A stretch of DNA of 64,000 bases from Agarophyton chilense (Eukaryota > Rhodophyta > Florideophyceae > Gracilariales > Gracilariaceae), in contig JARGXX010000068.1 of assembly GCA_030374765.1 (NCBI GenBank), positions 2,480,001 through 2,544,000 of the forward strand. The letters run 5' to 3'. Positions 14,986 through 64,000 of this stretch are shown here, piece by piece. Below the pieces are notes generated by a model that did not search any database, was not told where the DNA came from, and saw only the letters and a list, made by a program, of their open reading frames with translations. Position 1 is the first letter of the stretch. Each line of letters begins with the position of its first letter. Both the position numbers and the translations under genes were made by a program.

Positions 14986-14988
14986 AAT

Positions 14989-15002
14989 TGGTCTCCCGAC
15001 TT
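14989..15002 (+). other. Primer-binding site of element B
   Basis: TGGTCTCCCGACTT begins three nucleotides after the LTR and would pair with a tRNA ending ...AAGTCGGGAGACCA. Element C has the same PBS although its LTRs are different. I could not assign the tRNA. Confidence 0.75.
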
Positions 15003-15108
15003 AGAAGTCAAGACCGCTTGTGTCCTCTCTGAGGTTCTTTTCCGTTTGACGGGTTTTCTCTGGTCTCACCGGTTTGCTTTCTATTCTTCCGTCGAGACGG
15101 TGTGGCCA

Positions 15109-17219: not shown

Positions 17220-17225
17220 AGGGAG

Positions 17226-17241
17226 TCTCCCCTTCGGGAGA
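17226..17241 (+). promoter_or_regulatory. Hairpin just after the gag stop (candidate -1 frameshift stimulator)
   Basis: TCTCCC-CTTC-GGGAGA forms a perfect 6-bp stem with a 4-nt loop, 7 nt after the gag stop. Protease continues in the -1 frame. Element C has an equivalent hairpin at 55863-55876 in the same place. Confidence 0.5.
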
Positions 17242-17254
17242 GGCGTCCTCAGAG

Positions 17255-17950
17255 TTGAGGCTGACGACGCCCGAGGCGCCGATGCCTCGCTCCCCGGTGA
17301 AAATCCTGACAAGGAAGGACACCGCAGACGCGGACTCTAAACACCTCGGTGTGTTGCGTCGACCGTGGATACGGATTAGAAATAACCGGATCCCGGATAG
17401 AGTCTTGGTAATGGCCAAGCGTAACTACAAGGTTTACGCTGACCTTGGTCTGCACACGCAGTTTATGGTGAGATATCTCACTGTCCTGGATACAGGTGCT
17501 GGGCTGAACTTTATTGTGGAATCGGTTTTACCCCCGCCATTGCGGTCACTCATCCGTTCTGAAACGGTACCCGACGTCTCAGACGCCAATAACAACCCGT
17601 TGAAAACGGTTGGTGTGATCGACCTGGTCGTCAGGCTAGGGCGGATGGTGGTTAAACTAACTTTTATTGTGTGCCGCTCGCTGGCCGCGCCAGTTATACT
17701 GGGATGTGACTACTGCGACAGGTTTGTCGACGCCATCCGCCCACGCCTTAAGCAGGTGGAACTTGAGGACAGATCGACCGTCCCCATTGTTCGTCAACCG
17801 CTGAAGCGGGCATCGAGGAAACACGTTCCTCTACCTGCTGCGCAGGAACCCACACCGGCGAACCGGGATTCTACGAAGCTACGTGTCGCGACGAGTCGAT
17901 TTGCATTCCGCCAAACTCCCACTCTTGGGTGCGTGTCAGTTCTCGTCAGC
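17255..17950 (+). CDS. Element B protease
   Basis: In the -1 frame relative to gag. It contains YLTVLDTGAGLNFI, a clear DTG aspartic-protease active site (about 17485-17515), then VVKLTFIVCRSLAAPVILGCDYCDRF with the hydrophobic-hydrophobic-G second motif. It aligns well with element C protease, including the linker RRPWIRIRNNRIPDRV. The frame shifts near 17930-17950, after which the homologous sequence continues in another frame. The start codon is uncertain; it is expected to be made by frameshifting from gag. Confidence 0.85.
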
Positions 17951-19890
17951 ACGGTACTCGAATCGTTCGACCGATACCATCACTGTCGAACAGGCATCAA
18001 CTCGCTTTCGCGGATGGAATGGTTCACATTGAGCCCGACAAATTGTTTTGTGTATGTGTGTCCAACTCTGAAGAGAAACACCAGTATCTGGTTAGGAACC
18101 AAGTCATTGGAAGAGTTGCTCCTCACCCCATGTCTATCTTTACCCTTCAAGGGGATCGTACCGGTTCAACCGGAATGGGTCACTCTGAGGAGGGAGATAA
18201 TCTCGTCGGAGGTCCCCAGTCTACGCTGAACATATCCACACTGCCGTGTGTGTCGCCACCAGCAGTACTTGTTAAGTTATCCACTGGTTCTTGGATTGTT
18301 GTCATCGACTACCGTCGGTTCCGCACGACTGACGTCGGAAAGATACCACCTGAGTTGGTGAATTTCAAAGCCCAGCCATTGCTGGATGGGCTACCGAATT
18401 GTTCGGATCATGAGAGTTGCTGGAACTCGTGGCTTTCAGTAATGCCTTCCGCTGTTCAGCGTTCGATGGGCGGCATACGCCCAAGGCGCAGAGGAGGGCC
18501 ATGTAATAGAACTCTGGATGCTTCAGCCCCTCGCCACGAGGATGGTTCTCAGAATCCCTCGCATATTGCGGAAGTTCCTGTTTCTACGATAGGACTAATC
18601 TATCCCATCCAGATGGTTGATTTACCCGCCAATAAGCGAGTCCCGCTCTACAACCCACCCGTGGGACTCTCTGATATACCGATTCAATCGGACGCTGGCC
18701 TGAATGGCCTTTCTTCTATCACACCACTGCGCGGTGTCTATCCCAGCCAGTTGGGCGCTTCTACCACTCTCTATTTCGCTCCGTCTAAGGAGGGGGAGGG
18801 GACCCGCTCAATCGCGGAAGCATCGCCGTCGCAACGGAAGTTGAACCGGACACCCCGGGCAAGGCCCCGGAGCGGGCAACCGGCATCGTCGCCGGACACC
18901 AATCCGCTCCCGCGGGACGCGGCGGTCAACCCGACCGCCACGCAACCCCGCAAGGGGGACCAAGGCGCTCGAAGACCCGAAGCCGGGAAGCGAGACCCTA
19001 CGGACGCTCCGCACCGCGTGGAAGCAACTGAGGGCTCCCCGCACATTCGCGGTCGCACACCGAGCGTTTCGGCCGATACCGGTACTCCGGCGGGCGCGGC
19101 GCAAGCAGGTCTAGCGAGCCACTCCGTTGAGAACGGTACAAACCCCATGGGGGAAAAGGGGCGCGACGACAAGTCGAAAACCGCCTCCCTTGCCGAACAA
19201 TCGGAGCCAACCGTCCGCGACGGTCCGACCACCCATCCTCCAGGTCACGTGACCCGGGCGGGAAATCGGACCAATGGGCACCCAGCATCCCGGTCATTGG
19301 CTGACAGCCACCCCGCGGAGGAGGATCGCCGGGACGGTGAACCACTCACCGCCCACGGCCCACCGCACGGCGGAAACTGCCCACCAATGGGAACGCTGCA
19401 TGCTTCAAATCAAGCGGAGGCCTCCGGCGAACCGTCACCAAGACGGAAGGACCCCCGCAAACTCGCGGTAAGAGCGGACTTCAGGGAAGCCCCTACCGCC
19501 CAGCGGAAACACAACGCGGCCGCGCCGGCAACTTCCGCGAAGCTGTACGGCAGCCCCGGCAACCTGGAAACCACCGCAGAGCAGAATGACAAACCGGGTG
19601 ACCCGGAACAGGCGACGACGAGCCCAGCACCACGCGGCGCTGAGCCTCGGGTCACCACCACCCGGCAAGGCCGGCAAGTTTACGTGCAGGAGTACGTCCT
19701 CGACCGGATCGTCGGACATAGCTACGATGAGCACGGGGTGCTCCAGTACCGGACCCGCTGGTACGGATACGGACCGGAGTGGGACACCCCGGAGCCCATC
19801 AAGCACCTCCCACGCTCCGCGGTAATGCGATACCACCGCCTTGCGGGGACCGCACTCCCAGCCACGCTGGTAAACGCCCAAGAGGGATAA
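17951..19890 (+). pseudogene. Element B fused ORF: protease linker, RT stub and chromodomain tail across a deletion
   Basis: A single frame (open from 17929) reads the protease C-terminal linker (HIEPDKLFCVCV), then an RT relic VLVKLSTGSWIVVIDYRRF where element C has the intact SWRFCIDYRR block. After unplaceable sequence it enters the proline- and charge-rich tail and ends with the chromodomain (VLDRIVGHSYDEHG, WYGYGPEWDTPEP). The rest of RT, RNase H and integrase are absent. That the frame stays open for ~650 codons across the deletion is notable. Positions 19354-19890 match 1-537 of element A. Confidence 0.8.
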
Positions 19891-20225
19891 ACCGTGAACA
19901 CGGAATGGAATGGCTGATGGCGCCACGCGCCATCTCCGTCCATGCCCCAACGCGGGGAAGGAAGCAACCGCTCACGCTATCCTAACGTCGTTGGTGGTCG
20001 TGCCAGTTACCTGGTCCGCGCGCGAAGCGCCCACCGTTAAACACGGAACTCCCAGCTAGGCTGGTTCCCTGCAACGCCGGAACCCCGGTTGAAGGCCGGT
20101 ACCCCGGAAAGAAAGAAGTGGACTTGGGAAAGGGCGTCGGAAAGGCGACCCTTTTCTTTTTTTATTTCTCACTACTGGCAAGGGCGCCCTAGTGGCTCCG
20201 CCCTACATTCTACCGGAAGCTCCGG
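19891..20225. other. Spacer between convergent ORFs in element B
   Basis: Near-identical to the spacer of element A. No coding signal; a T-rich run (TTTTCTTTTTTTATTTC) lies near 20151-20167. Confidence 0.7.
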
Positions 20226-21969
20226 TCATTCCTCCGCACGAGGTGGACCCCCGCCCAGGCGGTTGGCCAAGGCATCCCGCATGGCGGCCACATCACCCGA
20301 GATCTCGGAAGGGCGAAGCCCCACCTCCCGAAGGAAGCGCGCGATGACCTCTCCCCGCTCCGCGCCAGTGGCAGTTGCGGGCGGGCCCGCCACCGATGGA
20401 GTCGGATAGGAATCCGTTCGTACGGCATCAGCAGCCCCGGATGGAGCCGCACCACCGTATTCAACGGACTCCTCACCGGCCTCGCCGGACTCGTCATCCT
20501 CCATCGGAGCGTAACCCAGATCCTCCGGTTCGTTGTCGACCATCGGGTCACCATCCGCATAGTCTAGTAATAGTCGCTCGAGTGGACATAACCTCGTGGG
20601 TGGTCGGCCGGGACTTCACGCGGCGCATGCCGGTTGGCTTCCGCTTTCTCGCGGCTGATCTCGTGGTACTCCCAGGGGTCGAAGTAGACGAAATCCCCCG
20701 CTAGCGCGGTATTCCTCCCGAATCCGGGGCCAGACCCGCGACGCGGTTGAATGCGTTGGGAGTTCTCCAGCGGGACCTCATCTCACTGGACCCCCTCCAC
20801 AAAGTCGAGGAGGCCCAGCATCTCTTCTTCGTTCGCCTCGCCCCCGAGGGTGATGCGCATGTCCAAACGGCGGATCGCAGCCCGCACACGTAGGCCTCAG
20901 CGAGGATAAAAGCCGCAGTGCGGACGGCCCATTCGCTTACCATGACGGACCACCACCTCGACTGGGGATCGTTCAAGAACGACGACCCTACATAGGTGAA
21001 GACTGGGGGCAGCTCAATGAAGCAACCCCAGCACGCCTCCAAGGAGGACCACCAGTCTGGGAGACTGACGTACCGATCACGTCGGTGAGCAGGCGCGATG
21101 CGCTCAATCTCCGTGTTCTGGTACGGTACGAAATACCGGGTCCGGGCCCGCCAACGCCGCTCATCGCGGATGAAGTTCTGAAGGAAGTTCGAGCGCGACT
21201 GCCGCGGTTGGTAGCGGAACTCTGCCCGAAGAATCGGTCGTCCCCAGCAAAGGGCTTCTTGCCGAGCGATCGGTGTGCCCCTCCAAGCGAGGGTTTCCAA
21301 TCCGTTAAGACGGTCACAGTACGACATTTCCCCGCGAGTGCGGTAAAGGTGGACGTCGAATTCGACCTCTGGCGGTATCGGGAACTCGAAAGGCGCCCCA
21401 TGGTGCCTGAGATAAGCGATCCGCACAAGCGCGGCCTGAGCCTCCGCAGAGGATTCACCGCGTCGGCGGAGTATGTGGTGCACCGGGATGGCGATACGAT
21501 TACGCCAATCCCAGGACATGGTCACCACGCTTGGCAGGTCGCCCGGGAGCATCTCCGAATTATCGGTGTAGGATTGGATCGAATCCTCGTCGCGGACAGC
21601 CAATGGGTGAAACCAAGGCGCATACCGCAACATCGCGGAGCCATGCCGAGTTCTCGGATTTGCACCCATAAGGGCGTCGTAGGTCGGCCACTGCGGTGGG
21701 TCCGCCTGTCCGCGAAAGCGGGCGCCAATACGGCGGTCTTCGTACGCGAGGTTGATAACATCCCCAGGGTGGGGCGCGGACCGGAAGCCGGTGTAACCGG
21801 CAAGGGCGGGAGTCGCAGGTGTGTTATGACGGTCGGGGTTGGACATGGTGCGTGTTGGTGTGCTGTGGTTGGAATCGAATGCGAAGAGCTTGCGTGGGAT
21901 CCTTGGTGAAGGTGTGTTGATTTCCGGAAACCCGGTGTCGGACGCGCTCTTATCATGACGAGCTGCCAT
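20226..21969 (-). pseudogene. Antisense ORF (aORF) of element B, frameshifted
   Basis: ATG 21967-21969 (MAARHDKSASDTG) opens 422 codons. It contains PWFHPLAVRDEDSI, RPILRAEFRYQ and the WWSSLEACWGCFIEL and WAVRTAAFILAEAY blocks. About 33 bp present in element A (around 1530-1565) are missing near 20889, which changes the frame. The authentic acidic C-terminus resumes at 20543 (MVDNEPEDLGYAP) and ends at 20226. B keeps TGG where A has a TGA, so the two copies broke independently. Function unknown. Confidence 0.75.
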
Positions 21970-22002
21970 GCCGACTTCCTCTTCGAGGTGTTCGCCCTGT
22001 CT

Positions 22003-22017
22003 TAAGGGGGGGGGATA
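22003..22017 (+). other. Polypurine tract of element B
   Basis: A run of nine or ten G preceded by AA, ending GATA, abuts the 3' LTR at 22018. Confidence 0.8.
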
Positions 22018-22882
22018 TGAAGAGCAACGTCCTCCAGGGAGGTTTTTGGGGACTTAAGCTTTTTCCGGAGCCTCCGGCGTGCAACCTCGTTATGAGTAGG
22101 AGTAATCCGTTTTCACGGCGATGGCCGGAACGCCGGTGATGCACCGGCGGGACCGGGTGCCAAACACGTGGCCGCAGCGCCCGCGCGACACGTGGCCGCC
22201 AGATTGGCCCCTTTGTTAGACGGACATTTAGCTATTTAGGATAGACTTTATTTATTCTATTCTACGGTGACTACAGTACTTAGGCCGCCGGCCTCGCGGC
22301 CGCCGGTCCAGTAAAGTCTCCCCAACAAGGGTGATCTTGGTCTTCCAGATCTTGGCTCTGGGTCGAACCGCCTGCGCGGATATACAACTCCTTACGGAGG
22401 GATTTCCGGTGGTGCACGGCTTCCCAACCGCCTTGGACGTTCAAGCAGCCTTCGTGTGTTGGGTATCTATTCTCACTTTCGTGGTTCCACCCGTGTATAC
22501 GGTTTGCTACACCCGGCAGTGCCGGCTATTCCCGAGTCCCCTCTTGCGACTCGTGTTCAACCTCGCCCTCTTGCCTCCGTTCCCATTTTCCTTCCCTTTT
22601 CCTCCCCTTCATTGGGCAATTCCCGCTCTTGCGGCTCGCACTGACACCTGTCGTGCTCGCCACTCTCGTGGGTTTTGCCTCCTCAGAGGATACGCAAGCA
22701 CCGCTTCGGCGGATATTTTCGGCTTCTTTCAGCCTCCCTGCGCCCGTCGCGACGGTTCGGCTCCGGCTTACACCCGGCATTGCGCGCCGATCCCTGGGAG
22801 GGCTCTACCGCGCCGGTTACCTCGTGAGAGGAAGATCCGGACGTCTTCGTAGGTTTTCCCCCTTGGGGGGCATTGTCCTACA
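22018..22882 (+). repeat. 3' LTR of element B (865 bp)
   Basis: Same ends as the 5' LTR and followed by the target duplication CCCGC. CACGTG at 22165-22170 and 22189-22194. Confidence 0.95.
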
Positions 22883-44348: not shown

Positions 44349-44378
44349 TACAATTTGTATGAAATGCTACTGCAGCTA

Positions 44379-47001: not shown

Positions 47002-47346
47002 TGTAACGCAATTAATGGTAGGTCAGCGTAGTACGCTAACTTAGCAGTCATCGTGTTCCGGTAGTACTGGTATCAACCGGTGGTAGCGTGGTAGACCGGG
47101 TCCTAAGGTTCGAATCCTTGACGGCGGCACTCTCAGAGTACTTTATGCAATGAGCTGGCGTTTACTGCGTAGTCCTACAATTCAAAGCTACGGAAACGAT
47201 GGCTTGAAGACCAAAGAGTGGAACTAATATACCAAAGAAGGTAATTTAGTATCTTTACGGTGCCTACTTTACTCTAAGGAAGAAGCGTCACTCGAGCCAA
47301 GTAAACGGCAATGGCGAGGCGCTGGGATCTTCCAGGCACTGTAATG
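47002..47346 (+). repeat. 447-bp-class LTR, copy 2, first part (tRNA-like segment)
   Basis: Starts TGTAACGCAATT. It carries a tRNA-like stretch at about 47076-47131: TGGTAGCGTGGTAGA (A-box-like) and a perfect B box GGTTCGAATCC at 47107-47117, followed by ACGGCGGCAC. It is cut at 47346 by element C and continues at 59066-59202. Confidence 0.85.
47342..47346. repeat. Left target-site duplication of element C (TAATG)
   Basis: TAATG is repeated exactly at 59061-59065. Confidence 0.95.
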
Positions 47347-48260
47347 TGTGGAGCAAAACCCGGCGACGGGAATTGCTCTCGAGGTGTTCGAAGCCTTGCT
47401 CCCTGGGGGAGGCAGACTCAGAGACAGAGCCCTCCGTTCCACCCGTAGTGTGGGGTGTAACTCCCACGGGGGATTCCGGCAGTACCGACGGAGGTGAGGG
47501 GTAGAAACCGTTGGATCGGGAATGGGTATGGGTATCCCAAAGAATGGGGAACACCCGGCGAAGAGGAAAAACGGGGCGAGGGTCGGGCACTAACAGGTAC
47601 CGGACCCGAGAACCAGAAAAGGGGCGAAACAACAAAAGAAACCCAATACAGGGGCGAAAACCTGTCCTCGAAAGGAAACACAAAAAGCACGCAACAAGTA
47701 AGCAGAACCCCCACGGGGTATCGTGCACGCAGGTCGTCTGAGCCGTCCCAAGGGGGTGGTTGCACGGAACCCAAACGTGGGCACTCTCCAAGTGGAGTCG
47801 TGTCCCTACGCAGGCGTTTCTAACCAGAGCCCGTTCCGGGTTGTAAGGCCAAAACGATGGCGACGAAGAACCTCTAAAGGTATCGAAGACCAACCTTGGT
47901 TACCATTTACTTTGAGCTTCGGACTGTCAGATCTCGTCTCCCTAAGTAGGGCCCACTAACTAAACTCTACAGTAGTGCACACCTGCTCAAAGCCATACAC
48001 GTGGAGATCCAACTGTCAGGGCCCAAAAGTCCAACGTTCTAACAAATAATCGAAAATCGGTGCCAAAATTAAGCCACGTGTATCACGGGGCCAATCCAAC
48101 CATGGGCCATCCGAATCTTCTCTTATAGGCGAATTCTAACCAGAAAACAGTGCCACCTCAGCACACCTTAGAGGGGATCATAGTCATAACCCTCGGAGGG
48201 TTCAATCCTCATTCTATGAGTTGCATATTCAATTATCCCCTAACTGGGCGTTGCTCTACA
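47347..48260 (-). repeat. 3' LTR of element C (914 bp)
   Basis: In sense (minus) it reads TGTAGAGCAACGCCC ... GCTCCACA. CACGTG at 47998-48003 and 48075-48080. It matches 58146-59060 except about 16 changes. Confidence 0.95.
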
Positions 48261-48276
48261 TCTCCCCCTCCTTAAG
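48261..48276 (-). other. Polypurine tract of element C
   Basis: On the minus strand AAGGAGGGGGAGA directly precedes the 3' LTR start TGTAGAGC. Confidence 0.85.
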
Positions 48277-48341
48277 ACGAGGAAGAACATTCCGAGCCGC
48301 GGGTGTCTAGCTCTCCGGTCACTATACATACTTCTCTCCCA

Positions 48342-50198
48342 ATGGGGTTCTTCACCACTTCTGAGGATCGCCACAAAACCGGCACATCGGTACAACTTTC
48401 TTCTACTCCTCCGACTTTCGGCGAAAAGCAACTTCTCGCAACAGCAGTCTCAACCAGCCCTCTTAAGGGAATGAACCCATACGTCCTCAACCCACTCTCG
48501 GGGCCATCGGCCTCCGCGCCGGCGGACAACGAAGCTCCCCAGCAGGGTGGATATTTCTCCGGTTTGGATGCGGCTCCGTCAGGTACCGAACCTTCCGCCT
48601 CGGCGAGCAACCGACATCCTCAGGAGGATTTGGACATTAACGCGGTGGCGTGGAACTCCGCTCATGCGATGCCCTTGGTAGCAAACTCCAGAGGTTGGAT
48701 CTCAAACGAATCCTTTCGAAGGTGGAGTCCCCTTACCGATCCGGTGATATATTCCCGCGCTCCGTGGTTCCATCCGACAGCGGTTCGCGACGATGAGCTC
48801 ATCGACTCCTACGTGGAGGACGGCTTATTGCCGGGTGGCCTACCTGTCGAGGTTGTACGTTCTCCCGATTGGAGGGCGCGGGTAGCCATAGAGCCTCAGT
48901 ATCTATACCGCAGTCGCGGGGAGTCCCTGGACAAGGCGCGCGCAGCGATGGCGGCTCTGGCCTACCAGCGATTGGAGAGGTCACGATTTAACCATTTGGT
49001 TCCCCCGGAGTACGGGTTCGATGTCGCCTATTACCGCACGTACGGTGAGGTCTCCTACGGGGATAACCTGGCAGCCTTTCCCGAAGCCGAGTTCCGCGGA
49101 CCGGGTTTTCCTCTCCGAGAAGATATGCTCCAATGGATTCGTCCCATCCTTCGGGCTGAATTCAGGTACCTTCAACGGCAGTTTACCCAGAATGGGTTCG
49201 ATCGACGCGTGCGCTTCGAGCGCCGCTCGCGCTCCCGTTTCGGGTTCCATGTCCCGTATCCTCACGTGGAACTGGAGCGTATCCATAACACGGCGAAGGT
49301 TGGGCGATTCGTGCCCCTTCTAGCTTGGTGGAGTAAGGTCGAGGTCCCCCGAGGGTGCTTTGCTGAACTGTTCCCATGCATCTACTATATCGGGTCTCGA
49401 TTGATGCACGACCCGAACTCGGGATACTGGGCCCTCGTTGCAGCCGAGTGGTCAGCCCGCGTAGCGGCGCACCTCCTCTGGGATGCTCATGACCATTTCC
49501 GTATCTGGTATATTCCTCCGATGCTACGGACCATCATGCGTCAGATCGACCTTGTCCCAGCGTTGGGTTCGGCCAGCAGCGTGCAGGACCTGTATCAAAT
49601 CTTGGACGTGATCGACAACACCCAATGGGATCGAGTTCCAGTGGAAAATCAGCTCCCAGGGGAAGGATCCGCGCGAGACAAGTCTCCTGGCCGGTACGAT
49701 CCGGGCTCCGGTAACTGGGTCTATTACAATCCCTTCGAAGGGGTTCGCATCAGCGCGGCGCAAGCACGGGCGCTGATGGACTCGCCTCGACCGATGCCGG
49801 TGGGACACCCGACGGGGTTCATTTATACCGAAGATTACGAGTACGAGCCTCCAGTAGACCTGGACGATCCAGCGTTGGATAACGACATGCCAGCTCCTAG
49901 TGGAGTACTCCCTGTGGAGCCATCTGCACCCTTCCAACCAGTGGGAACGACCTCAGCTGCGGCGGCGAATGCATCCGGTGGCGGTCCATCTGCTCCCCCC
50001 GGGTGGGGTGTGAACACCCTTGCGCAGGCGCCGGTTGCCACTCCGCAAGCGGATAGTGTGCGACAAGGCCTCGTGAACGCGGGCATTCCGATTCCCCCGG
50101 GTATGACGGATGTGAGCCAGATGTTGGCTTTCGCCTCGGCGTACCATCAGGGTCAGAATCCCAACGGTGGGGCGGGTCTCTCCTCGGGCTTTCCGTAG
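48342..50198 (+). CDS. Antisense ORF (aORF) of element C, intact
   Basis: First ATG 48342 gives 618 residues; the open frame starts on a GTG at 48303. It runs opposite to gag-pol and ends 363 nt from the chromodomain stop. Conserved blocks shared with A/B and F are PWFHPTAVRDDELIDSYVE (~145), GESLDKARAAMAALAYQRLE, RPILRAEFRYLQRQ, VPYPHVELERI, and WWSKVEVPRGCFAELFPC with ARVAAHLLWDAHDHFRIWYI. The region after residue ~400 is predicted loop: Asp-rich with YNPFEG and FIYTEDYEYEPPVDL, then a Pro/Ala/Gly linker and a short terminal helix (MTDVSQMLAFASAY). No known domain, signal peptide or membrane helix. That this frame alone stayed clean while pol collected stops suggests selection or chance; a codon test would decide. 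Function unknown. Confidence 0.85.
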   Translation: MGFFTTSEDRHKTGTSVQLSSTPPTFGEKQLLATAVSTSPLKGMNPYVLNPLSGPSASAPADNEAPQQGGYFSGLDAAPSGTEPSASASNRHPQEDLDINAVAWNSAHAMPLVANSRGWISNESFRRWSPLTDPVIYSRAPWFHPTAVRDDELIDSYVEDGLLPGGLPVEVVRSPDWRARVAIEPQYLYRSRGESLDKARAAMAALAYQRLERSRFNHLVPPEYGFDVAYYRTYGEVSYGDNLAAFPEAEFRGPGFPLREDMLQWIRPILRAEFRYLQRQFTQNGFDRRVRFERRSRSRFGFHVPYPHVELERIHNTAKVGRFVPLLAWWSKVEVPRGCFAELFPCIYYIGSRLMHDPNSGYWALVAAEWSARVAAHLLWDAHDHFRIWYIPPMLRTIMRQIDLVPALGSASSVQDLYQILDVIDNTQWDRVPVENQLPGEGSARDKSPGRYDPGSGNWVYYNPFEGVRISAAQARALMDSPRPMPVGHPTGFIYTEDYEYEPPVDLDDPALDNDMPAPSGVLPVEPSAPFQPVGTTSAAAANASGGGPSAPPGWGVNTLAQAPVATPQADSVRQGLVNAGIPIPPGMTDVSQMLAFASAYHQGQNPNGGAGLSSGFP

Positions 50199-50561
50199 TT
50201 CCGCCTTCGGGCAATTGTAGAGTCCCTAGCTTGGCGACAATAGTAAACTTCTGATATTTGCATAACTTCTTTTCTTCTTCCTTCTTAGGATCTTCTTCAT
50301 CTTCGTCTTCATCTTCTTCCCTTCCTAGGGTCCAATCTTCTTCTTAATCTTCTTCTCCACTTCGTGGGTCTTCTTTTCCTTTTTTCATCATAAACTGTCC
50401 CGATAACCGGTGCTGTGTTCCCCGGTTAACGGCGCTAGGCCGAGGGCTAGTAGACATTCCCTCTCAATACGTGTTCTTCGGGATACTCTCCTCAATTCCT
50501 CTTCAGAGGTCCAACATCTTCCTCACTTCGAGGTCGCATCCACACCAGTTCCCGTGGTGGC
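50199..50561. other. Spacer between convergent ORFs of element C, with (CTT)n tract
   Basis: No gene. 50262-50398 is almost pure pyrimidine on the plus strand (CTTCTTCATCTTCGTCTTC-like), i.e. purine-rich on the sense strand of the element. It lies exactly between the two convergent stops. Confidence 0.85.
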
Positions 50562-50852
50562 TTACCCGACTTGGGCACGATCCAGATTTGGAGGCAAGGT
50601 TACCCGAGCGCGTCGGTGATAGGATAAAACCTTAGACCTCGGAAGGTGCTCAATGGGTTCCACTGTATCCTCATCAGGCGAGAATCCGTACCATCGGACT
50701 TGGTAGCGGACTTCTCCCTTGGAGGTGTAGATGTGACGCACGATGCGATCGATAAGGAATTCCTGCGGGTACACTTTTCCCTGTTCGGGCTTCTCTCCCA
50801 TCTTGGAACGCTCTAGTTCCCTTGAGGGTGTCAACGTAGGGTCTAGACACAC
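50562..50852 (-). CDS. Element C chromodomain (C-terminus of pol, out of frame)
   Basis: FLIDRIVRHIYTSKGEVRYQ, VRWYGFSPDEDTVEPIEHLP and a final helix form a chromodomain with DTVEP in place of TWEP. The frame differs by one from integrase, and about 500 nt without clear coding lie between, so it is detached from pol by mutation. No ATG of its own is expected. Confidence 0.85.
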   Translation of the reverse strand: MCLDPTLTPSRELERSKMGEKPEQGKVYPQEFLIDRIVRHIYTSKGEVRYQVRWYGFSPDEDTVEPIEHLPRSKVLSYHRRARVTLPPNLDRAQVG

Positions 50853-51351
50853 CCCGGTGGGTTCTTTTCCGTGTTGCGAGCGGGTCTCAGCACTTCGTCC
50901 AAACGGCGCCGAGTGGCCTGTGGGCTACGTTGTAACTTCCGTCTACGGAGTCAAAACGGCCCAGTTTTGGGTTCTTCTTAAAGCTGAGATCTTCCCGATA
51001 ACAACGTTGTTCTTAGATTCCGTGACGGTTGAGAAACCGCGACGCGGTAGCGTCTCCAATCTCAGGGGGGTAATACTTCAACGTCAACCCGAGCTACGGG
51101 GACGAAGGTTGCTCTTGTGCAACGCGCCGTGCGACGGAGGCGGTTTGTGCGACGGTTGGTCGTCAGAGCCTTTTGATTGGCTCGGTGCCATTCGACGTGT
51201 GCCACATAAATGCGCGGAGGCCGGTTGCCACTCCGCAAGCGGATGTGAGGTGGCGCTTTGGACACGCGCTAGCACTCTCCTGAGCTGTCCCCGACGGGTC
51301 TCACTCATTTCTTTCCCATTCCTGAGGGTTCCAGTGTCTCCATAGGAGTTC
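50853..51351 (-). other. Decayed tail of element C pol between integrase and chromodomain
   Basis: No clear frame. A 25-bp segment at 51223-51247 (GCCGGTTGCCACTCCGCAAG...) is also found at 50031-50055 in the aORF. Confidence 0.5.
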
Positions 51352-52947
51352 CTATTCCCATTCCATAACGGAGAGCCAAATTTGGTCAACCTCGTCGTCG
51401 AGATCTTCCCCGTGCGAGTCTGCTGACACAGCTCGTTCCCGAGAAAGCGGGGTTTGAGTGTGCGACACCTCAGTATCTCGTCCGCGGCAGCGAGTGATCT
51501 TCGGCTCTGTAGGCGTTCCGGGTGCGGAGTTCTCCACACGACTCTCTCTAGGCGGGTTTTCGTCATCTTTTCTGACGTCGTGCTCCGCTGGGTCGGCGGT
51601 GATGTCGCTACCCATACGCTGGGGTTGTGACTTCTCTGTCGCCGGCTCGGTCGGGCTCGCCGTCTCACTGTGAGAACTAGATTCCCTGTTAGGGCGACTG
51701 GCTGACGCCGAAACATCGTCCTGCGAAGGAACTAAGTCCTCCTCCCCCTCCTTAGGCGGAGAGCCAGGAGGCTTGATTACCTCCGGTGGGAGAGTAACTC
51801 TGTAAGAGTTCGTTGACTGGGCCCTTGAGGGAGCAGGCCCAGGTTCGGGGGTATCCAAAGTTTCCGGTAGGTCGGTTAAACCACGTTCCGGGTGCGGAAG
51901 TATAACGGGGTGGGTGTTCGAATCTCCGCCTGACTGGTTAACTTCCGTTGAATCATCCCCTGTGGAGGGCGTTGGTGCCGACACCACTTCCACATTTGGG
52001 TTGGGCGCTCGTGTGATGTGGTCCCTGGAGATCCGTTCGTGGCGGTTAGCGATATCCAATACCACCGTGTCCGAGTCTACAGAAACCACCCGATAGGGTC
52101 CCTCCACAATTGGCGAAAGCTTGTGCCTACGTTCCTTTTCAGGATTGTAGAATTCCTTTCGAAGGAAGACGAAGTCGTCGGGCTCCACCTGAGGTAGAGG
52201 TTTGCGAACCCGATTGTCAAAGTCCTTCTTGTAGGCGCGTTGAGCTTTGTCCATTGCTTTCCGGGCTATCGGCACCATCTTCGTAAGCCACTCCTTCCAG
52301 GCTTCTCGGTACAATCCCGGTGACGGGTACGTCGACAGCGTCGGTTGAGCCTCAATGGCGACCGGCGGCGGTGTCCTTGACAGTACCAGTTCGAATGGGG
52401 ATAACGATGTAACCCGATGTACCTGGGTGTTGTATGCATACGTGATAGCGTCTGTGTACAAGTCCCAATTTTTGGGGTGATCCGCAACATACGATCTCAA
52501 AGCGTTGAGTATCGTGCGGTTAAACCTCTTCACCTGGCCATTCCCCTGAGGGTGATGCGTAGTAACAAATAGATTCCTTACATCAAGGATTCGACATACA
52601 TCCTGAAAGAACTTTGATGCGAATTGCCCTCCGTTGTCGGATAACAACTGCACCGGCGGTCCATATACGAACAGCCAATGGGTCACGAACGCTTGCGCAA
52701 CGGTAGCGGCGGTGATCCGCTTCAGCGGCACAGTTCTCGTTAGCTTAGAGAATCTGTCAGAAATGACAAGCAGATACCGATGACCTCGGGGCGTCCTGAT
52801 AAACTCCCCTAGGATGTCTATGGCCACGAATTCGAGTGGAGCCCGTGCCGGGAACAGCGGCAACTTCTTAGAGTGCTTCCGAAGTTTGACGTCATTCTTG
52901 GCGCAATTGGCGCAGGCCCGTCTGACGGCGTAACAATCGAATGCCAT
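51352..52947 (-). pseudogene. Element C integrase, catalytic Glu changed to Lys
   Basis: The zinc module ends CANCAKND. The core shows VAIDILGEF (first Asp), QLLSDNGGQF (second Asp) and HHPQGNGQVKRFNRT, where the third catalytic residue is Lys rather than Glu (AAG for GAG). NTQVHRVTSLSPFELV and a GPYRVV chromo-barrel-like region (VVSVDSDTVVLDI) follow, then a long Pro/Ser/Glu-rich tail. In frame with RNase H except for a TAA near 52952-52954 (RDF*WPAM). With the Glu lost it should not integrate DNA. Confidence 0.9.
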
Positions 52948-52956
52948 TGCCGGCCA

Positions 52957-54768
52957 TTAAAAGTCCCTTCTCAACGTGAGGTACAGTTTTCTTCCCCCGG
53001 GGTGGGCGCTAACCTTCACATAGTGAGTGAGGTGTAATACCCTCTGTTGTAGGGTGTGCGGCACCACTATCCTCGGGCGAGGTCCAACGGTCCTGATTAG
53101 GTAACCCTGATCGTCGTCCTCGAAAGGTAACTGAAATCCTCCGTTGAGGCGAGCCCGAATCCGTGTACAGAATGGGTCGAGCTGTTGCTCGCGTATCATC
53201 TCCTCTAAAGAGATAGGTATAAAAGAGCCGGTCGGCGAATCCAGACTCTCGTTGACGAGTATATCGTCACAAACATCATCCGTCAGCGGTTGAGCTTCTC
53301 CCTCGAGGTCCGATACCATAAAGCGTGGGATGTCATCGTCCTCGTAGAGTTCCGTTTCCGCTGTGGTTCCCAAGCGGGATAGTGCATCAGCCTGAGTGTT
53401 CAGCTTCCCTTTCTTGTACAGGATCTCAAAGTCGAATTCCGACAGTCGGAGACGCCAGCGCATAAGGCGGCCCGAGGGTTCGGAGATCTCCAGGAGCCAA
53501 CGCAAGCATGCGTGGTCCGTATGGACTTTGAAACGAGTACCCATCAGATAGAGGCGAAGTGTAGCTAAGGCCCACACAACGGCTAAACATTCTTTCTCGG
53601 AGACCGAGTAGTTCCTTTCATGGACATTCAGGGAACGTGACCAGTACCCAATAGGGTGACGTTCACCATCCTCAGAGGAATGGAACAGTGCACACCCTAC
53701 TTGGTTTGCACTAGCATCGGTGTCCACTTCGTAAGGGAGCCCAGGATTGGGTAGAGCCAAGATTGGCGGTGATGTTACGGCATTCACCAGTGCCGTGAAG
53801 GCAGACGCTTCCGCGTCGCCAAAAGGTTCCAGTTCAACTGGTTGTCCCTTCGTCAGGAGCCTGTTGAGGGGGGTGGCAATATCCGCAAAGTTCGGGACGA
53901 ATCGGCGATACACGTTACACAGACCTAAAAAAGATCGCAACTCCGTTTGAGTTTTCGGCTGTTTTGCTTCCTTCAAGGATTTCACTCGTACTTAATCGAT
54001 TGAAAGCTGTCCGGGACGGATGATATGACCCAGATACTTAACCGAATCGGTGAAAAACTCGCACTTCTTGAGTTTCAAGGTGATTCCCGCGTCGCGGAGT
54101 ATCTTCATTACGTCCCTGACGTGTTCGAGGTGGTCATCCAGGTTGTTGGAGAAGACAATAATGTCGTTTAAATACACTAGACACGTCCTCCGCTTGAAGG
54201 GAGCCAACAGAATGTTTATCGCCCGTTGAAACGTTGCGGGGGCATTTGTCAACCCAAAAGGCATCCTCCGGAATCGGAAAAGTCCTTGATGACACACGAA
54301 CGCCGTTTTGTCTCGATCTTCCTCCCTAATAGGGACTTTCCAGTAGCCCGAATTGGCGTCGAGGGTAGAAAAAACAGTAGCGCTCCCAAGGGAGTCGATG
54401 TATTCGTCCATCCGAGGGATCGGGTACACATCCTTAATGGTTACCTCGTTCAGGCGTCTGTAGTCGATGCAGAAACGCCACGATCCATCCGGTTTCGGAA
54501 CTAACACCACTGGTGAGGCCCAAGCGGACTGGGCAGGTTCAATTACGCCCGCTTTAAGCATCTTCTCCACCTGAGATTTCTCCTCTTCTCGAGCTTTCGG
54601 TCCAGCCCTGTAAGGGTGTTGGGCAATAGGCCGAGTGTTCGGTAACAAGTCGATGCGGTGTTCTGTAATCCCAATAGTTCCAAGGGAACCATCCCACATG
54701 GGTGTAAATTAACGAAGCATGTGCCTCAGCTTCTCCCGATGAGATGCAGGTACATGGTTGAGATCCCA
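52957..54768 (-). pseudogene. Element C reverse transcriptase and RNase H, YLDD changed to YLND
   Basis: RT blocks are SPVVLVPKPDGSWRFCIDYR, VFSTLDANSGYWKVPI and FRFRRMPFGLTNAPATFQRA. The catalytic box reads VYLNDIIVFS (AAC for GAC) near 54165-54190. RNase H follows with DTDASANQVGCALF, YSVSEKECLAVVWAL, TDHACLRWLL and QADALSRLG. In-frame stops are TAA near 54711-54713, TAA near 53989-53991 and TAA near 52952-52954. All pieces are in one frame with protease. Confidence 0.9.
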
Positions 54769-55884
54769 CTTCTACAATTCCTGAACAGGATCCGCCTGGT
54801 CTGCTCCTGTGATAGGGGCCGTAACCTTCTGAGGTTTAAAGTGTTCAGCGTGTGGGGCTGCAGTCGTATGCTCACCGTCTTCCGCGATTTCGGCAGTGCC
54901 CTCCCCCTCCTTAGGGTCCGCCACACCAAGGACCTCTGCGATAGAGATCTTTGTAGGTACGACCGCATGCGGGTGTGGAAGAACAGAATCCAGGATCTGG
55001 TGTTTGACCAAATGCTGCGTTGTCTTTCCAAAGTTGGCTACCAAAACCTTGAAAGGTTTATCCGGTTCCACGGAGACAACCCCATTCGCAAGGGCGAGTT
55101 GACGCGGCGTATACAGAGACGGGTTCGGTTGTACCACATGCACACCAATTTGCTTGGTAACAACTGTGACCCAAACCTGGGTTTCTGGCGGGATAGCCAC
55201 TGACTTCGCAACCTTTACCCGTGTAGACACCGGGTCCTTCTTCACAGATTCCTGCGCGACAGGGAGAGGAACGCGTGTTCGCGCTGCTCCCTGTAAGGGT
55301 TTACGAACGATTGGGATCGTAGACCCGTCTTCGAGTTCCACAGTTCTATTCCGAGGACGGATGGCTTCCACGAAGCGGTCGCAAAAGTCACAACCCAGTA
55401 TGACTGGTGCTGCAAGTGACTTGCATACAATAAACTCTAGTTGAACGAGATAGGAGCCTAACCTCACCATGAGGGAAATTGTTCCCAGTGTCCGTAGCGG
55501 GTTGTTGTTTGCATCGGCGATATCCAAACGTGGACCGGTACGAACTTGAACCCGGAGCAGCGGGGGTAACAATTCAACATGAATTAAGTTAGGAGCGGCT
55601 CCTGTATCCAGGACAGATATTTGACGAACCATAAACTGGTTGGACAGGCCGAAGTCGGCGAATACTTTATAATTCCGCTTGGCCATTACCATAACTCGAT
55701 CCGGAATACGGAGATTACGGGACCGTATCCACGGGCGACGGAGGACACTAAAGTATCCCGAGTTAACGTCGGTGTCAGCCGTTCTCCTTGAAAGGATAGT
55801 CACAGCTGGGGAGCGAAGCTGGAGCGCCTCGGGCGTCTTCAACTCCGGCTTAGAAGACGCCCCTCCCGCAGGGGAGACTCCCAA
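54769..55884 (-). CDS. Element C protease
   Basis: Opens in the -1 frame two nucleotides past the gag stop. SVLDTGAAPNLIHVE gives the DTG active site, and LEFIVCKSLAAPVILGCDFC is the second structural motif. The linker RRPWIRSRNLRIPDRVMVMAK matches element B. It ends at a TAG (54769-54771) in the same frame as RT. It has no ATG start in a plausible place, so it is presumably made by frameshifting from gag. Confidence 0.88.
55863..55876 (-). promoter_or_regulatory. Hairpin after the element C gag stop
   Basis: On the minus strand CTCCC-CTGC-GGGAG, 10 nt past the gag TAA (55889-55887), at the same relative position as the hairpin in element B. The last gag codons read TCG AAA AAC TAA, an A-rich site suitable for slippage. 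Confidence 0.5.
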
Positions 55885-55886
55885 GT

Positions 55887-57918
55887 TTAGTTTTTCGAAG
55901 CGGACCCCACCGAATTCGGTGCAGCTGCCTCGAAGGGGACCGGTTGTTCCCCGTTCGCGGGTACAAGTTCTGTATCTCTGTCAGCAAGGTGAGCTCGGAG
56001 TATCCTTTGTTCCTCATAGGACCTACTCGGGACTCGAGCTTTCTCCTCAGGGGTCAGAGCCTTGTACTGAGCGATAATTCGTGAACCCTCCCGCAGGGGA
56101 AATGTGCAGTCTGGTGCTTTGTGACCATGAAGGTAACACAAATAGCAAATCAGCTCTGCCGGGTTCGGTTGTGGACGTGAATCCACGCGACGTGGTGCTG
56201 TATCCCTCCATCCGGGGCGAGAGAACCGAGCAGCGGTATTCGCAAAAGGTAGCGATGCGGGCTGGCACCCTCCGTCCGTGGGTATATAGCGCAGGGTCTT
56301 CATCCGTAGTCGGAGCGGATGTCGATCGCAACTCAGACGTACCCATAGATTCGGGGTTACTTCCCATGAAGTGAATGTTATCATTGACCCCCACAGGGGC
56401 AGGGCCTCCTGCGCGTGACAAAGACGAGTTACCTCCATCGGCGAGGAGTGCACGTGTCGGCCGACTCTTTCGGTTCTGCCGGGCACGGAGAGTATTCCCC
56501 TCAGCCTGGGCGTACTGAACCAGTTCCAAGTAGGTCAGCTTGCGCTTCTCTTCCCGATGTCGGGCAACCAATGCCCTTATCGAGGGGTCCAAACCATCCA
56601 CAAACATGGAGCATCTCTCGTAGGCGAGGAATACATTCCCGCATCGGTGAAACGCTTTATTCAAGCGAGTTGAATACACCGTTTCGGTTTCCATCGGCTT
56701 CTGCCGCGTATCCCTTAATGCAAGGATTGCTTCCTGAATCGCATTTCCAGTAGCGTATGACCTCAAGAGGTACTGCACCGCTTCGGGCCAGCACGTGACT
56801 CCCCCTTCCGAGGCTCGGGATGATCCACGGACGGAGTTGAACTGGTCTTCAGCCATCCCCTTTAAGAAATAGGGTAATGCAAGATACGCTTGCGCTTCAC
56901 TCATACCGAGGATGTCAGCCTCCTGGACGAACCTCGCAAGGAAATCGAGCACCAGAATTGGGTCTGTTCCTGTGAGCTCCCTCTTCTGTAGGGTGATGCT
57001 CAGCCTTTTGATGTAGTCCTTGAACTTACCCGTTCCGCGGGATGTTCGATCTCCCGAAGGGTTATCCAACCGGTAATAGCGGTACGATAGCAGCTTCCGA
57101 TAGAGAGGATTCGTCGGTTTCAGCACCCTTAATCCAAGGTGTTTCCTACCCTTCTTCCGGGTACGGATTGCCCCTTGAGAGGTGTAAGTAGCCTTCGACC
57201 GAGTCGCCCGGGATGACCGGCGTCCATCTTCACTATCCGAAGATTCGGAGGACGAACTCGATGACAAGCGATTTGGATCGGAATCCGATAAATCCTCTTG
57301 GAGGTGAACGCTCTTCTTTGACTTGCGGCGGTCGCGTTTAGCGGAGCGGTGTTCTTCGTCTTCCGAAACGTCGTGTTTATTCTTCGAGGCTTCTGTGTCT
57401 CCGTCCATACGGATAATGGCCTCGAGGGTGTCCAGCCGAGCTCGGAAGCGTTCCGCTTGCACGCGGTGTTCCTCCACGAGGCTCCGGTACTCCTGGATAA
57501 AGACCCCAAAGGTACCAAAGCTTTCCAAAAGGGAGTTCACATCCCTCCTCAGGGTACGAAGGTCATCGGCGACTCCCCGCACCTGGGCGTCCTCCACCCT
57601 GAGGCGGAGGGTTGTAACCTCCTGAAGGAGCTCGACGTGAGCCGCGTTGGCGATATCGATTCGAGTCTCCAGGCGCTGTGATTCAGGGTCGGCCCGACTT
57701 CGGGGTGCTGCTGAGGGGGTCTCCACCACTGGAGCTGGGCCCACAGCCACGACCTCTCGAGGACCTGAAACCACTGAGGGTGCTCTCCGAGTGTCCAGAT
57801 CGATACCGGAATCGTTCCAACCTTCGGGAATTGAGCTCTTCGGCCTAGGCGGGGCTGGGGGCACTGAATCCGCTTGACGGTTCGATCCAGTCCTGGAACC
57901 ACGGGTAGGCGGCGACAT
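55887..57918 (-). pseudogene. Element C gag
   Basis: ATG 57916-57918 (MSPPTRGSRTGSNRQ). After a Pro/Ser-rich N-terminus and a heptad-rich coiled coil (VELLQEVTTLRLRVEDAQ) comes an acidic/Ser stretch, then the gag core (NPLYRKLLSYRYYRLDN, DPILVLDFLARFVQEADILG, GVTCWPEAVQYLLRSYA). At about 56241-56250 the homologous reading moves to the frame that contains the zinc knuckle CYLCYLHGHKAPDC (C-x2-C-x4-H-x4-C), so the gene has a frameshift there or a mutation of one base. Stop at 55887-55889. Element B also breaks its gag frame, but at a different site, so a programmed event is unlikely. Confidence 0.88.
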
Positions 57919-58130
57919 GCTGCAGACACGACACCGACGATTCGGGGTAACGATGAAATTCGATCACGAGGTTCCCGGAGAACGGATGACGTAACACAAA
58001 ACAAAAATAAAAACCAATTCCACCCTTTCCAAAGGGGACCACTACAACAAATCTTCACGACGGTGCTTCCTCTTCCAAGAGATATTCCAACACGTGGATG
58101 ACCAACCCAAAAGTCCGAGAACGGCTTCTA

Positions 58131-58143
58131 AGTCGGGAGACCA
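58131..58143 (-). other. Primer-binding site of element C
   Basis: On the minus strand TGGTCTCCCGACT follows the 5' LTR after two bases. The PBS is identical to element B for at least 14 nt. Confidence 0.75.
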
Positions 58144-58145
58144 AT

Positions 58146-59060
58146 TGTGGAGCAAAACCCGGCGACGGGAAGTGCTCTCAAGGTGTTCGAAGCCTTGCTC
58201 CCTGGGGGAGGCAGACTCAGAGACAGAGCCCTTTGTTCCACCCGTAGTGTGGGGTGTAACTACCACGGGGGATTCCGGCAGCACCGACGGAAGTGAGGGG
58301 TAGAAACCGTTGGATCGGGAATGGGTATGGGTATCTCAAAGAATGGGGGAACACCCGGCGAAGAGGAAAAACGGAGCGAGGGTCGGGCACTAACAGGTAC
58401 CGGACCTGAGAACCAGAAAAGGGGCGAAACAACAAAAGAAACCCAATACAGGGGCGAAAACCTGTCCTCGAAAGGAAACACAAAAAGCACGCAACAAGTA
58501 AGCAGAACCCCCACGGGGTATCGTGCACGCAGGTCGTCTGAGCGGTCCCAAGGGGGTGGTTGCACGGAACCCAAACGTGGGCACTCTCCAAGTGGAGTCG
58601 TGTCCCTACGCAGGCGTTGCTAACCAGAGCCCGTTCCGGGTTGTAAGGCCAAAACGATGGCGACGAAGAACCTCTAAAGGTATCGAAGACCAACCTTGGT
58701 TACCATTTACTTTGAGCTTCGGACTGTCAGATCTCGTCTCCCTAAGTAGGGCCCACTAACTAAACTCTACAGTAGTGCACACCTGCTCAAAGCCATACAC
58801 GTGGAGATCCAACTGTCAGGGCCCAAAAGTCCAACGTTCTAACAAATAATCGAAAATCTGTGCCAAAATTAAGCCACGTGTATCACGGGGCCAATCCAAC
58901 CATGGGCCATCCGAATCTTCTCTTATAGGCGAATTCTAACCAGAAAACAGTGCCACCTCAGCACACCTTAGAGGGGATCATAGTCATAACCCTCGGAGGG
59001 TTCAATCCTCATTCTATGAGTTGCATCTTCAAGTATCCCCTAACTGGGCGTTGCTCTACA
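58146..59060 (-). repeat. 5' LTR of element C (915 bp)
   Basis: Same ends as the 3' LTR. CACGTG at 58798-58803 and 58875-58880. Followed by the target duplication TAATG (59061-59065). Confidence 0.95.
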
Positions 59061-62204: not shown

Positions 62205-62917
62205 TGTAGTATCCACTCTAACGGAGAGAGCAGACACCTGCGACAGCGTTCGGACTGCGTATGGGTCGCTTGCGGCGAAGGAAAAGGGGTGGTAGAGCTA
62301 CAACAGCGAGCTGGAAGTGGGGTGTAAGGCCACTACTCGCCAGCGAGGGTGAACAGTGCAACTGTAAAACGTTGATGGAACGTAGGTACGAGACGGCTCG
62401 TGAAGTGGTTGGGGGCTGACTATCTATTATAGCTCGTCCGGATCTCCGGTTAAGGAATCCTAAGCGAGGAACAGAATAGTCATGATGCCCATGTTATCTC
62501 CTTTACTTGGAGTCGGCGCTCACCTCTGGTACACTATATACTGTGTGCCAGGGTGAGTGCCCAAATAAATATATTAATGATACCCAGTGGTCAGCGACTT
62601 AGCCAAACCACTTTATGGGTATGGTCCCTAATGAACGTCTAGCTACAAAGGGTAGTAAAGCCCTCCACGTGGATCGCCACTACATGCGCCGTTGCCAATA
62701 TGGCATTCCCCTAGGAAGGGTCGCAACTATGCGCGCGCCGTGGTAAGCCACTCGACCCATGACTCCACGTGTTCCACTAAGACATTCTGCCTCTAGGCAT
62801 CCTATGCGGGATGCCGCTTCATATCACAATGCTGATGATAACATTCACTCATGAGTTCCAACCGCGACTTCGCGAAAATCCAACCTATCGGATTCCCCGG
62901 CATAGTAAAATACTACA
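62205..62917 (-). repeat. 3' LTR of element F (713 bp)
   Basis: Ends TGTAGTATCC (62205) and ATACTACA (62917) are an 8-bp inverted pair. CACGTG at 62666-62671 and 62766-62771. It is the reverse complement of 11477-12143 over most of its length. Confidence 0.85.
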
Positions 62918-62941: not shown

Positions 62942-64000
62942 ATGGGGGACGCAAGAAGCGTTTATACGCAGTCGGACCGGTGTTCCGGGTACTCATCGTC
63001 ATCACGAATTCCTCGCCACCCGACCATCTCTTACAGGTCTCAACAGCATTCTGTTCCTCACCGCTCTTCAGCTCGATCTCTCGCGATGGATCCGAACGCC
63101 GGGTCCAACCCGTTCCAGCCCTCCTCTGAGGATGTGCCTTCTGGGGCTCCGTCCAACACTGCTGGTTATGCGTCGCAGCCTACTGCTCAACTCGGTCCAT
63201 ACCGTTCGTTCCTCACACCGTACACCGGATTCCGGTCGGTACCGTTACCTCAGCCAAACGTGTCTCCGATGCCGAACGTGGCTTACGTCGCCTCTGCGGG
63301 TGTGATTCGAGCTCCTTCTCGTCGTGCTCAGCGGAGCTACGCGCACCCTGCGGATTTCTATGGACGAGATCTTCTCTACAACGTTGAACTTTTCGCGCAA
63401 ACGCCCTGGTTTGATCCAGGTGCTATCCGCGATGACGCGTTGATACAAGAGTATGTACACGGTGGGTACTTCCCTGACGGTATTCCGGAACACGTGATTT
63501 ATAGCGACGACTGGGCGAGCCATATTGCATTGCCATACAACGCGATTGCGCGATATTCAACGGAAACCTTGTCCGAAGCCCGTACGCGGTTCACCAAGCT
63601 GATTTACTAGCGTCTTCACCGATTCATCAATAAGGTTCTCCTCCCGCAGGACTGGGAACTAGATACCTGGAAAGCCCGTACCAACGGGGAAGGTTACTCG
63701 TATATCGAGACAGTCGTTGAAGTCAATGTTAGCGGTTGGCGCGGTGTGCGCGGTGTGCGTGATGCAGCTCTCTGCTTTCAACAACCTCTTATCCGTGTGG
63801 AGTTCCACTTCCTTCGAAAGCGTGACATTCCCCATTGGGATTATCCCCGTTGGGAACGTCGTACTCGATCACGTTTGGGCTGTTTGGTGCCGTATCAAAT
63901 GATCGAGATTGACCGCATCCGGCGGAATGCGCGCTTCGGGCGCTACATCCGTATTCCGGAGCATTGGGCGGCGATCGAGAGTCCTCGTCGTTGCCCTGTG
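62942..64000 (+). pseudogene. Antisense ORF (aORF) of element F, one stop, runs off the window
   Basis: ATG 62942, 25 nt from the LTR. The frame is open to a TAG at 63608-63610 and continues in the same frame to the window end. It aligns with the element C aORF: PWFDPGAIRDDALIQEYV, GYFPDGIPEHVIYSDDW, TLSEARTRFTKLIY, then after the stop DWELDTWKARTNGEGYSYIE, RVEFHFLRKRD and VPYQMIEIDRIRRNARFGRY. Identity to A/B and C is low but collinear. The TAG replaces a residue between two conserved positions, so it is probably a simple nonsense mutation. Function unknown. Confidence 0.75.

What the first reader, a model, noticed from the sequence alone, without database searches (positions are those of the whole stretch)
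48342..50198. A conserved antisense ORF carried by three different LTR-retrotransposon families
Elements A/B, C and F have unrelated-looking LTRs. Each encodes, on the strand opposite to gag-pol, a long protein that starts 25-82 nt from the 3' LTR and runs toward the end of pol. Where the end is visible the two stops are 330-365 bp apart. The proteins are collinear (PWF[HD]P.A[VI]RD[DE], RPILRAEF, VPY...E[IL][ED]RI) although DNA similarity between families is low. In element C the aORF is uninterrupted (618 codons) while pol has four stops. Additional antisense ORFs are known in some plant Ty3/gypsy elements, but I do not recognise this protein. It could be a regulator, an envelope-like or accessory factor, or a host-directed antagonist.
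Basis: partly seen in the sequence, partly recalled or inferred. Interest (0 to 1): 0.88.

Follow-up and report, generated by a model that had tools for sequence, protein, structure and literature searches.

The report
Backward accessory gene in algal retrotransposons
A red seaweed's jumping genes carry an extra protein gene written on the opposite strand to their normal genes; its central part is conserved between distant families and matched nothing described in the libraries searched, so it is probably a real accessory factor, of a kind already known from flowering plants and fungi.

Summary
Element C (47347-59060) is a Ty3/gypsy chromodomain retrotransposon on the minus strand with a 5-bp target duplication. 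Between pol and its 3' LTR lies a plus-strand ORF (48342-50198, 618 codons). Families A/B and F carry homologues in the same place, 24-81 nt from the 3' LTR. DNA-guided comparison of the core shows codon-phase conservation (A-C identity 64/72/40% at positions 1/2/3) and dN/dS about 0.3-0.4; LTRs and spacers do not align. At least 276 copies were scored in this genome (79.8 Mb, probably Agarophyton chilense). Relatives occur in Gracilariopsis chorda and unnamed records. The protein has no Pfam or PDB-sequence match; its helical core (pLDDT 74) had no structural match in the searches completed. Conserved antisense ORFs at this position are known from plant Retand, Grande and RIRE2 and fungal Boty. 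This is a new protein family of that class, in red algae, on a chromodomain backbone. Best reading: an accessory, probably nuclear or regulatory, protein made from antisense mRNA started in the 3' LTR. Coding is well supported; transcription and function are untested.

The parts
47347..59060 (-). Element C, a Ty3/gypsy chromodomain LTR retrotransposon, sense strand minus
   Evidence: LTR pair 98.3% identical; 5-bp target duplication TAATG at 47342-47346 and 59061-59065; flanks joined with one TSD align without gaps (415 columns, 86%) to an uninterrupted repeat near 61248-61667
47347..48260 (-). 3' LTR of element C; presumed to hold the antisense promoter of the aORF (inferred)
   Evidence: promoter not tested
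48261..48280 (-). Polypurine tract beside the 3' LTR, which fixes minus as the sense strand; lies in the aORF 5' leader
   Evidence: sequence
48342..50198 (+). aORF of element C, 618 codons, antisense to gag-pol
48759..49841 (+). Conserved helical core (about residues 140-500)
   Evidence: conservation profile; AlphaFold2 model of window 48690-49860, pLDDT 73.7, pTM 0.75
50043..50147 (+). C-terminal helical hairpin, weakly conserved, behind an acidic low-complexity linker
50199..50561 (.). Spacer between the converging stops of aORF and pol, 363 bp
   Evidence: no match between families
50613..50753 (-). Chromodomain at the C-terminus of pol
   Evidence: Pfam PF00385, E 3.7e-08
51352..52947 (-). 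Integrase part of pol
   Evidence: Pfam rve E 7.4e-10
52957..53985 (-). RNase H part of pol
   Evidence: Pfam RT_RNaseH
53992..54699 (-). Reverse transcriptase part of pol
   Evidence: Pfam RVT_1 E 5.1e-40
54772..55884 (-). Protease part (weak match)
   Evidence: gag-asp_proteas E 0.013, below its cut-off
56047..57918 (-). gag (by position and homology)
   Evidence: 39-57% identical to the corresponding ORF of family A; no Pfam match
58125..58145 (-). Primer binding site, nearly identical to that of family A
   Evidence: sequence
58146..59060 (-). 5' LTR of element C
14122..22882 (+). Element A, TSD CCCGC, chromodomain-like pol end, apparent internal deletion in pol
   Evidence: Chromo E 2.5e-4, below its cut-off
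20226..21969 (-). aORF of element A, frameshifted near 20890
871..2646 (-). aORF of element B (element cut by the window start), interrupted
62207..62917 (-). Presumed LTR of element F (a related copy at 11477-12141)
   Evidence: boundary approximate
62942..64000 (+). aORF of element F, with a stop at 63608; the frame continues about 765 bases past the window (L031 to 2765)

Best explanation
The ORF is a genuine accessory gene of a red-algal chromodomain Ty3/gypsy lineage, acquired before families A/B, C and F split and kept since. It would be expressed from a separate antisense mRNA that starts in the 3' LTR, reads through the complement of the PPT and ends near the short spacer before the pol stop. 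The product is a soluble protein of about 600 residues: a low-complexity, probably disordered N-terminus, a conserved Arg/Trp-rich helical core, and an acidic tail ending in a short helical hairpin. Most likely it acts in the nucleus on the element's own cycle (LTR transcription, RNA fate or integration), as proposed for plant antisense aORFs and known for HTLV HBZ. Shown here: coding constraint on the core, position, architecture and occurrence in three families and another genus. Inferred: antisense promoter, translation and the nuclear or regulatory role.
For: Homology of the proteins is certain (E 9.8e-155 to 3.8e-67; further relatives). DNA-guided alignments, not steered by amino acids, are mostly in codon phase (A-C 700 of 748 columns, A-F 239 of 290, C-F 213 of 273) and identity falls at position 3: A-C 148/233, 168/234, 94/233 (chi-square p 8e-12), A-F p 5e-7, C-F p 0.009. 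dN/dS 0.29 (228 codons), 0.32 (77) and 0.43 (69). LTR and spacer do not align between families beyond 38 bp. Comparing the 70 aORF hits with the 81 integrase hits gave 19 neighbouring pairs, all 19 convergent and 1143-1287 bp apart. The aORF stays open about as well as integrase: 42 of 70 copies stop-free, 37 stops, against 55 of 81, 31 stops over a somewhat shorter query; counted by hand from the tables. Core isoelectric point 7.2-9.1 and tail 4.1-4.8; core model. Class precedent: PMC7264820 (parts 1 and 2 of 3 read), PMC11963269 (passages, some from its abstract).
Against: No transcript, promoter or localisation evidence was available. No recognised DNA-binding domain and no clear nuclear signal by simple motifs. 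Within families the constraint signal is weak (C rough omega 0.5-0.8; codon positions nearly equal in A), as expected if most copies decay neutrally; ranking by protein score also biases those samples. Full-length amino-acid-guided comparisons are not decisive: true-frame identity of 32-36% compares with 23-29% for codon-shuffled controls and 24-34% for other frames, the mirrored antisense frame reaching 31-34%. The aORF core changes faster than pol (pN 0.40-0.46 against 0.23-0.39, same kind of alignment). A structural role in the particle is not excluded.
Confidence: 0.45

Rival explanations
1. The protein is a particle or trafficking component (second structural protein, movement or nuclear-entry factor) rather than a regulator.
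For: Large size, conserved helical core and retention beside gag-pol in three families.
Against: No similarity to gag by profile comparison (probability 0.1 per cent scale of hhalign, only 3 gag sequences); no viral fold match; no strongly hydrophobic stretch in 5 of 6. Antisense expression is an odd way to make a stoichiometric structural protein.
Confidence: 0.25
2. The antisense RNA matters (dsRNA or interference with pol) and the protein is secondary.
For: Convergent layout with pol; proposed for plant elements (PMC7264820).
Against: Codon-phase conservation with fast-changing third positions in the core and lack of DNA similarity in LTR and spacer show selection on the protein.
Confidence: 0.12
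3. A host gene was captured and is carried passively (transduction), or a nested element inserted there.
For: Its origin is unknown; capture is a known process (PMC7264820).
Against: Same position and orientation in three diverged families and similar stop-to-stop spacing in the two measured; constraint between families. None of the 11 relatives found could be shown to be a host gene, but their genomic settings could not be read, so this is not excluded as an origin.
Confidence: 0.08
4. The frame is an open-frame artefact of base composition or of pol on the other strand.
For: None beyond the usual caution with antisense frames.
Against: It does not overlap pol (stop at 50562); 640 open codons against a maximum of 415 in 1,000 random sequences; homologue in another genus.
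Confidence: 0.02

Closest known systems
Retand lineage antisense ORF with TRP28 (PF04195), plants (PMC11963269)
   Same: Antisense ORF between pol and 3' LTR, present in nearly all clusters, of unknown function, thought to be regulatory
   Different: No Pfam match at all in 7 of 7 aORF members scanned at E up to 10; host is a red alga; the element has a chromodomain, whereas Retand is described as non-chromovirus
Grande gene23, RIRE2, PvRetro13 (plants) and Boty (fungi) antisense ORFs (PMC7264820)
   Same: Same position and orientation; Grande gene23 is reported to be transcribed antisense and its protein to be nuclear
   Different: Their sequences were not held here, so homology was not tested directly; all are known to me only from that review
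HTLV HBZ (antisense gene with promoter in the 3' LTR)
   Same: The transcript layout is the model invoked
   Different: No bZIP or other Pfam match; much longer protein (recalled); no transcript data here
Gracilariopsis chorda hypothetical protein BWQ96_10156 (P0002)
   Same: Homologue over the core and C-terminal motif, 41% identity
   Different: Named only as a hypothetical protein; its genomic setting could not be read here

Membership tests
LTR retrotransposons with antisense aORF between pol and 3' LTR (aORF-3R) | ORF between pol and 3' LTR, antisense to gag-pol | tested here: met
   PPT and PBS fix the sense strand; stops 363 bp apart; 19 of 19 neighbour pairs convergent
LTR retrotransposons with antisense aORF between pol and 3' LTR (aORF-3R) | Present in many copies and conserved | tested here: met
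   70 C, 99 A and 107 F matches scored, lower bounds; dN/dS 0.29-0.43 over the core; pol changes more slowly
LTR retrotransposons with antisense aORF between pol and 3' LTR (aORF-3R) | Antisense transcription from own or LTR promoter | not testable with these tools
   No RNA data. Short Agarophyton records holding aORF protein (P0005-P0008, contigs of 702-2243 nt) could be transcripts; unverified
Retand / TRP28 (PF04195) | TRP28 domain in the antisense ORF | tested here: not met
   0 of 7 members match any Pfam family at E up to 10; P0009, P0003 and P0001 none at E up to 1
Retand / TRP28 (PF04195) | Non-chromovirus pol | tested here: not met
   Chromodomain in C (3.7e-08) and F (6.3e-09); A 2.5e-4, below cut-off
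Ty3/gypsy chromovirus | PR-RT-RH-INT order with C-terminal chromodomain | tested here: met
   (protease match weak)
Ty3/gypsy chromovirus | Placement in the chromovirus clade of an RT tree | not tested
   No tree was built
Envelope-like ORF | Sense orientation and transmembrane segment | tested here: not met
   Antisense; maximum 19-residue hydropathy 0.82-1.33 in 5 of 6 proteins, 2.15 in P0003 near its N-terminus
HBZ-like retroviral antisense regulator | bZIP domain | tested here: not met
   No Pfam match
HBZ-like retroviral antisense regulator | Antisense mRNA initiated in the 3' LTR; nuclear protein | not testable with these tools
   Needs RNA and localisation data
Plant mobile domain proteins (PF10536, accession recalled) | PMD domain | tested here: not met
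   No Pfam match in 7 of 7 members

The most novel reading that the evidence does not exclude
Red algal chromoviruses evolved, independently of angiosperm, fungal and retroviral elements, a dedicated antisense gene whose product has a fold of its own and controls the element from a transcription unit started in the 3' LTR; antisense accessory genes would then be a recurrent, convergent solution of LTR retroelements across eukaryotes.
Probability: 0.3. Interest if true: 0.75.

Novelty: new variant of a known kind. Interest (0 to 1): 0.56.

Why it matters
Antisense genes of retroelements are described from deltaretroviruses, flowering plants and some fungi, and their function outside retroviruses is unsolved (PMC7264820, PMC11963269). 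A separate red-algal family on a chromodomain backbone, with no relative found by sequence or fold in the libraries searched, points to repeated origin of the same layout. The large number of copies makes antisense transcription and selection easy to test. It also warns that such element proteins enter databases as ordinary hypothetical or unnamed proteins (Gracilariopsis chorda BWQ96_10156; Agarophyton records).

Tried and rejected

Led nowhere: viral contigs and prokaryote genome contigs gave no relative. Querying the own genome with P0001, P0002 and P0003 gave no further family among the scored hits (capped lists). The full-length model was poor (pLDDT 49). Within-family selection tests were weak. 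My first codon comparison was amino-acid-guided; its controls showed inflation, so I rely on the DNA-guided alignments, which cover only part of the core (228, 77 and 69 codons).

Papers: PMC7264820, parts 1 and 2 of 3 read; PMC11963269, PMC10388701 and PMC12502185, found passages only; others seen as search listings. Searches in which a red-algal antisense ORF could have appeared; none of the listed titles or abstract starts describes one. Only listings were seen, and subscription papers are not held.

Full report
What is there. Element C occupies 47347-59060 with its sense strand on minus. Its LTRs are 98.3% identical. It is flanked by a 5-bp duplication, TAATG, and the joined flanks align without a gap (415 columns, 86%) to an uninterrupted copy of the target repeat near 61248-61667. 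The primer binding site follows the 5' LTR and a polypurine tract precedes the 3' LTR on the minus strand, so orientation is not in doubt. Pfam recognises RT, RNase H and integrase, and weakly the protease; a chromodomain ends pol.

The antisense ORF. On the plus strand, 81 nt from the 3' LTR, an ATG at 48342 opens 618 codons, with the stop codon ending at 50198. The longest open frame in 1,000 first-order Markov sequences of the region was 415 codons, against 640 observed stop to stop. It does not overlap pol: the pol stop is at 50562, 363 bp away. In family A the spacing is 335 bp.

Conservation. tblastn finds the protein in the A, B and F elements of the window. Amino-acid-guided codon comparison gave low third-position identity (0.29-0.34), but controls showed that such alignments inflate positions 1 and 2: true-frame amino-acid identity was 32-36%, codon-shuffled controls 23-29%, other frames 24-34%, with the mirrored antisense frame at 31-34%. 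I therefore used DNA-guided alignments. Of 748 aligned columns between A and C, 700 are in the same codon phase, with identity 148/233, 168/234 and 94/233 at positions 1, 2 and 3 (p 8e-12); A-F gives p 5e-7 and C-F p 0.009. dN/dS is 0.29 (228 codons), 0.32 (77) and 0.43 (69). LTRs and spacers do not align between families apart from a 38-bp LTR match. The aORF core changes faster than pol (pN 0.40-0.46 against 0.23-0.39).

Within families the signal is weak. In C, diversity at codon positions 1/2/3 is 0.024/0.021/0.033, and rough omega is 0.76 for singletons, 0.53 for changes in 2-4 copies and 0.78 for those in 5 or more (27 of 30 loci). In A it is 0.031/0.031/0.038 (12 loci) and in F 0.055/0.046/0.060 (20 loci), with F spacer at 0.11. 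Most copies are probably dead and drift neutrally, and the loci were chosen by protein score, so these numbers are biased and add little.

Copies. The genome searched has 79,762,974 bases in 135 contigs. Scored matches were 70 for C, 99 for A and 107 for F, lower bounds by the tool's note. By hand count from the tables, 42 of 70 C copies have no internal stop (37 stops), and 55 of 81 integrase copies have none (31 stops). Comparing the two hit lists gave 19 neighbouring pairs, all 19 convergent and 1143-1287 bp apart.

Which organism. Records of Agarophyton chilense match at 86-96%, and the published G. chilensis assembly is 76.07 Mb in 138 contigs (PMC10388701, passages). I infer that the window comes from this species or one very close; no tool named it.

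Relatives. Three protein searches, each scoring about 8,000 candidates, found 11 proteins in all: P0001 (48%), P0002 of Gracilariopsis chorda (41%), P0003 (37%), fragments P0004 and P0010 (62-65%), Agarophyton P0005-P0008, and the distant P0009 (648 aa, 24-29%) and P0011 (27-29%). P0009 keeps the order of core and C-terminal motif. P0006 lacks 69 nt which, in the window copy, begin with GT and end with AG (49567-49635). That would fit a spliced transcript or a predicted intron, but the source of the record is unknown.

How it probably works. The protein can only be made from antisense RNA. With 24-81 nt between LTR and ATG, that RNA most likely starts in the 3' LTR (inferred). The plant literature reports antisense transcription and nuclear location for Grande gene23 and suggests a regulatory role by comparison with antisense genes of retroviruses (PMC7264820; PMC11963269). 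By analogy, and because the protein looks soluble with a neutral-to-basic core and acidic tail, I favour an accessory protein acting in the nucleus on the element's own cycle. Confidence: real coding gene about 0.95; regulatory or nuclear role about 0.45.

Comparison. The layout is that of the known aORF-3R class. The protein does not match TRP28 or any other Pfam family, and the backbone carries a chromodomain where Retand does not. None of the listings from eight searches describes such an ORF in red algae. Hence a new variant of a known kind.

Noticed in passing
43205-44389, minus strand: Open frame of 394 codons that looks like a Tc1/mariner-type transposase (recalled resemblance, no search); a pair of 40-nt inverted repeats, 78% complementary, lies near its ends (43148-43187 and 44210-44249).
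   Followed up: no
8596-8802: 20-bp tandem repeat array (ACTGACATGGCCATCACGGC), about 10 units.
   Followed up: no
29934-31505 and 32492-35089: Likely host genes: peptidase family M13 (plus) and a Sec20-domain protein (minus).
   Followed up: no
61248-61667, 9175-9620, 47064-47346: Copies of another repeat family; element C inserted into one copy, leaving a clean empty-site comparison.
   Followed up: yes
49567-49635: 69-nt GT...AG stretch inside the aORF that is missing from Agarophyton record P0006; possible intron.
   Followed up: partly
50240-50400: Purine/pyrimidine-biased tract in the spacer between aORF and pol of element C; possibly a terminator or an internal polypurine tract.
   Followed up: no
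14986-22017: The element A copy appears to lack most of RT and integrase but keeps the chromodomain end of pol.
   Followed up: no
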